Below, one piece after another: positions 27,461 to 28,492 of a stretch of 64,000 nucleotides of DNA (the first letter of the stretch is position 1; each line of letters opens with the position of its first letter). Under the pieces are notes generated by a model. The model saw only the letters and a program-made list of their open reading frames with translations. It was not told where the DNA came from and did not search any database. A program made the translations under genes and the position numbers. This DNA comes from Planctomycetota bacterium (GTDB taxonomy: Bacteria; Planctomycetota; UBA1135; UBA2386): contig CANEYR010000005.1 in the NCBI GenBank assembly GCA_947444055.1, forward strand, positions 1 through 64,000, given 5' to 3'.

Positions 27461-28492
27461 ATGGTCCTGATCCGTTCCCACGATGCGTTGTTCCGGTTCG
27501 TCTTCGGCGAGCCGGAGCAGCTTGCTGAGCTGTTGCGCAGCCATTTGCCGCCCGCGATCGCTTTGGCGATCGACTGGAGCACCCTGCGTCGCATCGATGG
27601 CAGCTTCGTCGACAGCGCGTTGCAGGAGCGGCAGACCGATCTGTTGTTTGAAGCCTGGATGGGCAGCGTGCGCATCCTGATTTACGTCGTGGTCGATCAC
27701 AAGTCGGCGGACGATCGGTTCACGTCGCTGCAGATGGCGCGCTACGTCGTGCGTGTGCTCGACCAGTGGCTCATGGCGCATCCGGAAGCCAAGCTGTTGC
27801 CGTTCGTCTTGCCTTTCGTCGTGCACCATGGGGAGCGGCCGTGGAGCGCCCCGCGCACCTTGCGCGACCTGTTCGACTTTGCAGGATGCAGCCAGCAGGT
27901 CGCGAGCTTCTTGGCGCCCTTGCAGTTGGACCTACGGTTCCATCTCGATGACTTGGCGGGCTCCACGGAAGCCGACTTGGACGATCGCCGACTCTCCGCC
28001 GTCAGCGACCTGACGCTGCGGTTCCTGCAGTTCTTGCGGCGGCGTTCGCCCGAGGACGCTGCCAACGACATCGTGCGCTGGCAGCATCTGGTGGTGAAGT
28101 TGCTAGAGCATGGGCGCGGGCAAGATGTCATGCTGGCGCTATTCTCGTGGTTCTTGGCCGGAGCCCCGGCCAGCCACGAAACCCTGCGCACTGTCATGGC
28201 CCAAATTTACGAGGAGAACCTACCGATGCGAAGTGCACTCGATCTGTTGCTCGACATGGGGCATGAGCGTGGGCTGCAGGCTGGTGTGCAGCAGGGCGTG
28301 CAACAAGGCGTGCAACAAGGCATGTTGACCGCCCTGCGCGGTCTGCTGCACGAGCAACTGCGCGGTCGTTTTGGCCCGTTGCCGCTGCCCGTGAGTCAGC
28401 ACCTAGACGCTTGCGACGTCCCTCTCCTGCAGCGTTATGGGCAACGCGTGCTGTCGGCGCAGAGCCTCGACCAAGTCTTCGCGGCGGACTGA
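27461..28492 (+). CDS. Rpn-family (recombination-promoting nuclease/putative transposase, PD-(D/E)XK) protein
   Basis: SHDALFRFVFGEPEQ, ALQERQTDLLFEAW...ILIYVVVDHKSADDRFTSLQMARYVVRV; C-terminal GVQQ repeats. Confidence 0.88.
   Translation: MVLIRSHDALFRFVFGEPEQLAELLRSHLPPAIALAIDWSTLRRIDGSFVDSALQERQTDLLFEAWMGSVRILIYVVVDHKSADDRFTSLQMARYVVRVLDQWLMAHPEAKLLPFVLPFVVHHGERPWSAPRTLRDLFDFAGCSQQVASFLAPLQLDLRFHLDDLAGSTEADLDDRRLSAVSDLTLRFLQFLRRRSPEDAANDIVRWQHLVVKLLEHGRGQDVMLALFSWFLAGAPASHETLRTVMAQIYEENLPMRSALDLLLDMGHERGLQAGVQQGVQQGVQQGMLTALRGLLHEQLRGRFGPLPLPVSQHLDACDVPLLQRYGQRVLSAQSLDQVFAAD
28226..28492 (+). CDS. Candidate internal in-frame small protein (RpnS-like) within the rpn gene
   Basis: ATG at 28226 in frame with the rpn ORF, preceded by GAGGAG (28211-28216) with 9-nt spacing; covers the C-terminal domain with 4-aa repeats. 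Confidence 0.5.
   Translation: MRSALDLLLDMGHERGLQAGVQQGVQQGVQQGMLTALRGLLHEQLRGRFGPLPLPVSQHLDACDVPLLQRYGQRVLSAQSLDQVFAAD
28283..28318. repeat. 12-bp (4-codon, GVQQ) tandem repeat x3 in rpn C-terminus
   Basis: GGTGTGCAGCAG GGCGTGCAACAA GGCGTGCAACAA. Confidence 0.9.

What the first reader, a model, noticed from the sequence alone, without database searches (positions are those of the whole stretch)
27461..28492. Rpn nuclease with gene-within-gene architecture (possible anti-phage RpnL/RpnS system)
Seen: Rpn-type PD-(D/E)XK ORF with plausible catalytic residues (QERQTD...VVDHK). An internal ATG at 28226 is in frame and preceded by GAGGAG with 9-nt spacing, and would yield an 88-aa C-terminal protein. 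Established: in E. coli Rpn proteins a separately translated small C-terminal domain (RpnS) blocks the toxic full-length nuclease (RpnL), and these act in phage defence. Inference: the same arrangement exists in this distant lineage.
Basis: partly seen in the sequence, partly recalled or inferred. Interest (0 to 1): 0.82.

Follow-up and report, generated by a model that had tools for sequence, protein, structure and literature searches.

The report
Nuclease gene hiding its own antitoxin
A gene in an uncultured Planctomycetota bacterium very probably encodes both a DNA-cutting toxin and, from a second start inside the same gene, the small protein that restrains it; this arrangement is known from E. 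coli, and here relatives show it is kept by selection in a distant phylum.

Summary
Window 27461-28492 is an intact 343-aa Rpn nuclease gene (PF04754, E 7e-35; catalytic residues conserved) with an in-frame ATG at 28226 preceded by GAGGAG and 9 nt. In one gene this would be weak evidence. Across 88 relatives from several phyla it is strong: a start codon lies at this linker position in 84, a Shine-Dalgarno (SD) motif in 60/84 versus 41/336 other internal ATGs, more than synonymous shuffles give (0/300), and local mRNA structure is lowest exactly there. E. coli RpnA's proven internal start scores the same. RpnS hallmarks are also present: three-helix C-terminus with DUF4351 relatives, repeat tract changing in 4-aa steps, C-terminal modules swapped between genes, and standalone rpnS copies (one directly downstream of its parent, as in E. 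coli rpnC/rpnE). Translation, toxicity, antitoxicity and phage defence are untested; there is no defence island (neighbours are peptidases and nuo genes), and some relatives have lost the SD or the start. New detail: the nuclease start appears leaderless, directly behind a promoter-like element, while the internal start has an SD. Verdict: a new member of the RpnL/RpnS kind (Zhong et al. 2023, rpn already reported in 34 phyla), not a new system.

The parts
27461..28492 (+). rpnL: full-length Rpn-family PD-(D/E)XK nuclease, 343 aa
   Evidence: PF04754 E 7.2e-35; hhalign to E. coli RpnA E 1.5e-18; catalytic residues conserved; AlphaFold2 pLDDT 88.7
28226..28492 (+). rpnS: in-frame internal ORF, 88 aa, putative antitoxin; C-terminal dimerisation/inhibitory domain
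   Evidence: Start codon conserved at this position in 84/88 relatives; DUF4351 (PF14261) matches in 22/36 aligned relatives; model is a long helix plus two shorter helices, like the published RpnAS three-helix fold
28211..28216 (+). GAGGAG Shine-Dalgarno of the internal start (9 nt before ATG)
   Evidence: SD 60/84 vs 41/336 control ATGs, p 3e-26; synonymous shuffles 0/300; positional peak; anti-SD CCTCC present in 16S of family relatives
28286..28321 (+). Tandem 12-bp repeats GTGCAACAAGGC x3 encoding VQQG units in the first RpnS helix
   Evidence: TRF; length of this tract differs between homologues in steps of 4 aa; two near-identical paralogues in this genome differ by one unit
27409..27453 (+). 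Conserved bipartite promoter-like element (AGATTT...AGTGCCACCG-N17/18-CCATTGC) ending 7 nt before ATG 27461; suggests a leaderless rpnL transcript
   Evidence: Shared by most close rpn loci and two other genes of the genome; 6 genome hits vs 0 for the reversed pattern

Best explanation
The gene makes two proteins. RpnL (27461-28492) is a PD-(D/E)XK DNA nuclease. RpnS (28226-28492, 88 aa) is made by independent initiation at the internal ATG behind GAGGAG, pairs through its repeat-bearing first helix with the same domain of RpnL, and holds the nuclease inactive. Repeat number and sequence of that helix set cognate specificity. When the balance fails, RpnL cuts DNA, plausibly infecting phage DNA. 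Shown here: gene, fold, conserved start/SD/open mRNA signature, repeat quantisation, module exchange, standalone copies. Inferred: actual translation of RpnS, inhibition, toxicity, phage trigger.
For: Family. Internal start: ATG or GTG at the linker in 84/88 genes; SD 60/84 vs 41/336, p 3e-26, and 0/300 synonymous shuffles; within this Planctomycetota family 29/49 vs 20/158, p 3e-10. AGGAG/GGAGG 5-mers peak at -20..-4. Local folding is weakest at offset 0, weaker than synonymous recodings (p 8e-10) with no effect at control positions. Positive control: E. coli RpnA M244, SD energy -8.5 and structure z +1.2, against -8.9 and +1.16 here. Standalone rpnS directly downstream of an rpn gene in a congeneric genome, 91% identical over 333 bp, keeping the SD. 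C-terminus swapped: 95% N-terminal vs 52% C-terminal identity between P0028 and L013, while P0028's C-terminus is 93% identical to the orphan L070.
Against: No expression data. 24/84 relatives have no SD at the linker start and some lack any start codon there: L012 has GCG, and five related proteins (P0021, P0035, P0039, P0044, P0045) have Ala, so the arrangement is not obligatory. SD is rare at ordinary gene starts in this window (4/23), so its use in this host is assumed from the 16S tail of relatives. For this gene alone the structure signal is weak (23% of recodings are as open). dN/dS of the downstream copy is about 0.7, so constraint there is weak. No defence neighbours. Neither Foldseek search against PDB gave a significant match, although 7TH0 is among solved structures.
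Confidence: 0.77

Rival explanations
1. Single-product gene: the C-terminal domain works only within the full-length nuclease as a dimerisation or DNA-binding domain; M256 and the EE codons are conserved for protein structure.
For: M256 is at the start of a long helix in the model; some relatives lack the start or SD; amino-acid sequence alone gives an SD in about half of the synonymous shuffles (42.5 of 84).
Against: SD frequency and mRNA openness exceed synonymous recoding; where the start is GTG it is preceded by an SD in 7 of 8; standalone copies carry the SD.
Confidence: 0.13
2. RpnL/RpnS is real but its role is recombination or gene transfer, or stabilisation of the element itself, rather than phage defence.
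For: Housekeeping neighbourhood; many paralogues in one genome; frequent partial copies and module swaps; earlier work proposed a recombination role (Kingston 2017, cited in PMC10327210).
Against: Phage protection was shown for E. coli RpnP2 (PMC10327210); diversifying repeat numbers fit an arms race.
Confidence: 0.4
3. The gene is an insertion-sequence transposase, as Pfam's name 'Transposase_31' suggests.
For: Family name; several dispersed copies in the genome.
Against: Zhong et al. [quoted passage not shown] Element ends were not examined here.
Confidence: 0.03

Closest known systems
RpnL/RpnS intragenic toxin-antitoxin systems of E. coli (RpnA-E, RpnP2) and C. difficile (Zhong et al. 2023, PMC10327210; RpnAS structure 7TH0)
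   Same: PF04754 nuclease domain, internal in-frame start with SD before the C-terminal domain, long first helix with 4-aa repeats whose number varies, standalone rpnS downstream of rpn (in a congeneric genome), several copies per genome
   Different: Planctomycetota host; RpnS 88 aa vs 49 aa in RpnA; D-x-K instead of RpnA's E-x-Q at the active site; apparently leaderless rpnL; housekeeping neighbourhood; no experiment
DUF4351 (PF14261) proteins
   Same: C-terminal module of 18/66 close homologues and 22/36 RpnS relatives
   Different: The window's own copy scores below the family cut-off (E 0.034)

Membership tests
Rpn family (PF04754/COG5464) | Significant match to the Rpn N-terminal nuclease domain | tested here: met
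   E 7.2e-35, 120.9 bits vs cut-off 21; hhalign to RpnA E 1.5e-18
Rpn family (PF04754/COG5464) | PD-(D/E)XK catalytic residues intact | tested here: met
   D60, D79-x-K81, Q91; near-invariant in 62 homologues
RpnL/RpnS toxin-antitoxin | Internal in-frame start with ribosome binding site before the C-terminal domain | tested here: met
   Sequence and family-wide conservation; same position as the RpnA start by the M-T/S-x-A-E-R-L motif that RpnA shares with intermediates
RpnL/RpnS toxin-antitoxin | C-terminal helical domain with 4-aa repeats of variable number in its first helix | tested here: met
   Helices 254-304, 309-317, 320-330; length differences of 62 homologues fall in 2 of 4 classes mod 4, 51 in one; repeats
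RpnL/RpnS toxin-antitoxin | Structural match to RpnAS 7TH0 | tested here: inconclusive
   Foldseek found no significant PDB match for the RpnS model; profile match to RpnAS covers 13 residues only
RpnL/RpnS toxin-antitoxin | RpnS is translated from the internal start | not testable with these tools
   Needs tagged immunoblot or ribosome profiling
RpnL/RpnS toxin-antitoxin | RpnL toxic, RpnS neutralises | not testable with these tools
   Needs expression assays
RpnL/RpnS toxin-antitoxin | Phage defence / defence-island association | tested here: inconclusive
   Immediate neighbours are peptidases and nuo genes, no defence genes; a lone gene can still defend

The most novel reading that the evidence does not exclude
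The two starts use different initiation modes: the toxin start is leaderless, directly behind a conserved promoter-like element and without an SD in the close subfamily, while the antitoxin start has a strong SD. The toxin:antitoxin ratio would then be set by, and respond to, the state of the translation machinery, so that stress or infection that disturbs SD-dependent initiation would shift output towards the nuclease.
Probability: 0.15. Interest if true: 0.72.

Novelty: new member of a known kind. Interest (0 to 1): 0.42.

Why it matters
It gives independent comparative evidence, from DNA of many phyla, that the internal antitoxin start of Rpn genes is under selection at the nucleotide level, and points to clades that have lost it, which could serve as natural tests of whether the antitoxin is needed. 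The leaderless/SD asymmetry offers a testable answer to the open question of how RpnL is released.

Tried and rejected
Foldseek of the full model and of the RpnS model against PDB: no significant hits. Sequence search of PDB with the homologue profile: nothing relevant. PADLOC: no meaningful hit. Viral contigs: no relatives. 16S of the window's genome is truncated, so the anti-SD was read from family relatives. Sigma-70-like internal promoter for rpnS: none found. An alternative upstream start (LHMAF, about 14 residues before) has an SD in part of one SD-less clade; left open. Anticorrelation of SD at the two starts: looked at by eye in the lists, none apparent.

Full report
What is there. Window 27461-28492 (+) is an intact 343-codon gene. 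Pfam gives PF04754 at E 7.2e-35, and NCBIfam matches RpnA at E 2.5e-15, below its cut-off. A profile of 66 homologues aligns to E. coli RpnA at E 1.5e-18. The active-site residues D60, D79-x-K81 and Q91 are near-invariant in 62 close homologues; position 79 is E in 46 and D in 16. ATG 28226 is codon 256, behind GAGGAG (28211-28216) and 9 nt. The genome is an uncultured Planctomycetota MAG, judged from the names of relatives, with 13 Rpn-like matches. Relatives occur in 22 of 61 genomes searched, all within its own family and none in 27 genomes of other families of the order.

Is the internal start more than chance? In one gene the evidence is mild: an SD-like 4-mer precedes 4.4% of internal ATGs in window genes and 12% in Rpn genes. 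I therefore took DNA for 88 non-redundant full-length Rpn genes, the Planctomycetota family plus loci from genomes labelled Deltaproteobacteria, Myxococcales, Chloroflexota, Actinobacteria and others. Near the aligned position of M256, 76 have ATG, 8 GTG and 4 none. SD motifs precede 60 of 84, against 41 of 336 other in-frame ATGs of the same genes (p 3e-26). Shuffling synonymous codons within each gene gives 42.5 +/- 3.3, with 0 of 300 shuffles reaching 60. Within the Planctomycetota family alone it is 29/49 against 20/158. The 5-mers AGGAG/GGAGG pile up at -20 to -4 and the mean folding profile peaks at codon offset 0-2. Local mRNA structure is weaker than in synonymous recodings (p 8e-10), also in the SD-less members, and random control positions show no effect. 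The experimentally proven internal start of E. coli RpnA (M244, PMC10327210) scores the same as this one. The sequences are related, so the p-values overstate independence; but different subfamilies have different residues around the same signal, which argues against mere inheritance. In the closest subfamily GAGGAG is kept when the linker loses a residue (L004, L005) and the rare codon CGA after ATG is kept in six of eight sequences.

RpnS hallmarks. The predicted structure has one long helix 254-304 starting at M256 and short helices 309-317 and 320-330; the published RpnAS is a three-helix bundle with a long first helix. DUF4351, which the RpnS paper links to standalone RpnS, matches 22 of 36 aligned relatives, though not the window's own copy above its cut-off. 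The tract carries three 12-bp repeats; between homologues its length ranges from 18 to 54 residues and falls in only two of four classes modulo 4. Two near-identical copies in this same genome differ by exactly one unit, dN 0.027, dS 0.102. In a congeneric genome a standalone rpnS lies directly behind its parent rpn gene, 91% identical over 333 bp, beginning upstream of the SD and differing by one unit, the same layout as E. coli rpnC/rpnE with their downstream copies. A metagenomic homologue shares 95% of the first part with L013 but only 52% of the C-terminal part, which is 93% identical to an orphan rpnS: the module is exchanged.

Limits. Nothing here shows translation, toxicity, inhibition or phage defence. 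24 of 84 relatives have no SD at the linker start, L012 has GCG, and five related proteins have Ala there. SD is rare at ordinary starts in this window. The neighbourhood is peptidase M17, DPPIV/S9 peptidase and the nuo operon. Foldseek gave no significant match for either model.

A detail not in the RpnL/RpnS paper as far as I read it (three of four parts). The nuclease start has no SD in the close subfamily (0/8; the N-terminal halves L002 and L003 also show none), and sits about 7 nt behind a conserved bipartite element that also precedes two unrelated genes of the genome, one with a normal SD leader. The simplest reading is a promoter and a leaderless toxin start, against an SD-led antitoxin start. 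This is inference; 5'-end mapping would decide it.

Comparison and verdict. It works like, and by every feature testable by sequence belongs to, the RpnL/RpnS systems of Zhong et al. 2023, who reported rpn genes in 34 bacterial phyla and showed RpnS expression for a C. difficile gene; only the structural match to 7TH0 was inconclusive.

Noticed in passing
window 27409-27453; L172, L174: Bipartite promoter-like element AGTGCNACCG-N16-20-CNATNGC shared by close rpn loci and two unrelated genes; 6 hits in 5.35 Mb vs 0 for the reversed pattern. Possibly the binding site of a specific sigma factor of this lineage.
   Followed up: partly
L004, L005 (with L002, L003): Two near-identical rpn copies in the window's genome are broken by assembly at the same point (between codons 189 and 203) and differ by one 12-bp repeat.
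   Followed up: yes
L070 953-1342; L062 864-1205; L064 866-1219; L066 926-1369: Orphan C-terminal rpnS-like ORFs inside contigs, with no full-length rpn gene found in the stretch fetched; candidate lone antitoxins.
   Followed up: partly
L008, L009, L063, L073: In one clade without an SD at the linker Met, a Met about 14 residues further upstream (LHMAF and similar) is preceded by GAGGAG; the internal start may have moved.
   Followed up: partly
window 33762-35990 (3' end): The ORF that carries a NuoI-like protein ends in a run of about 17 alanines.
   Followed up: no
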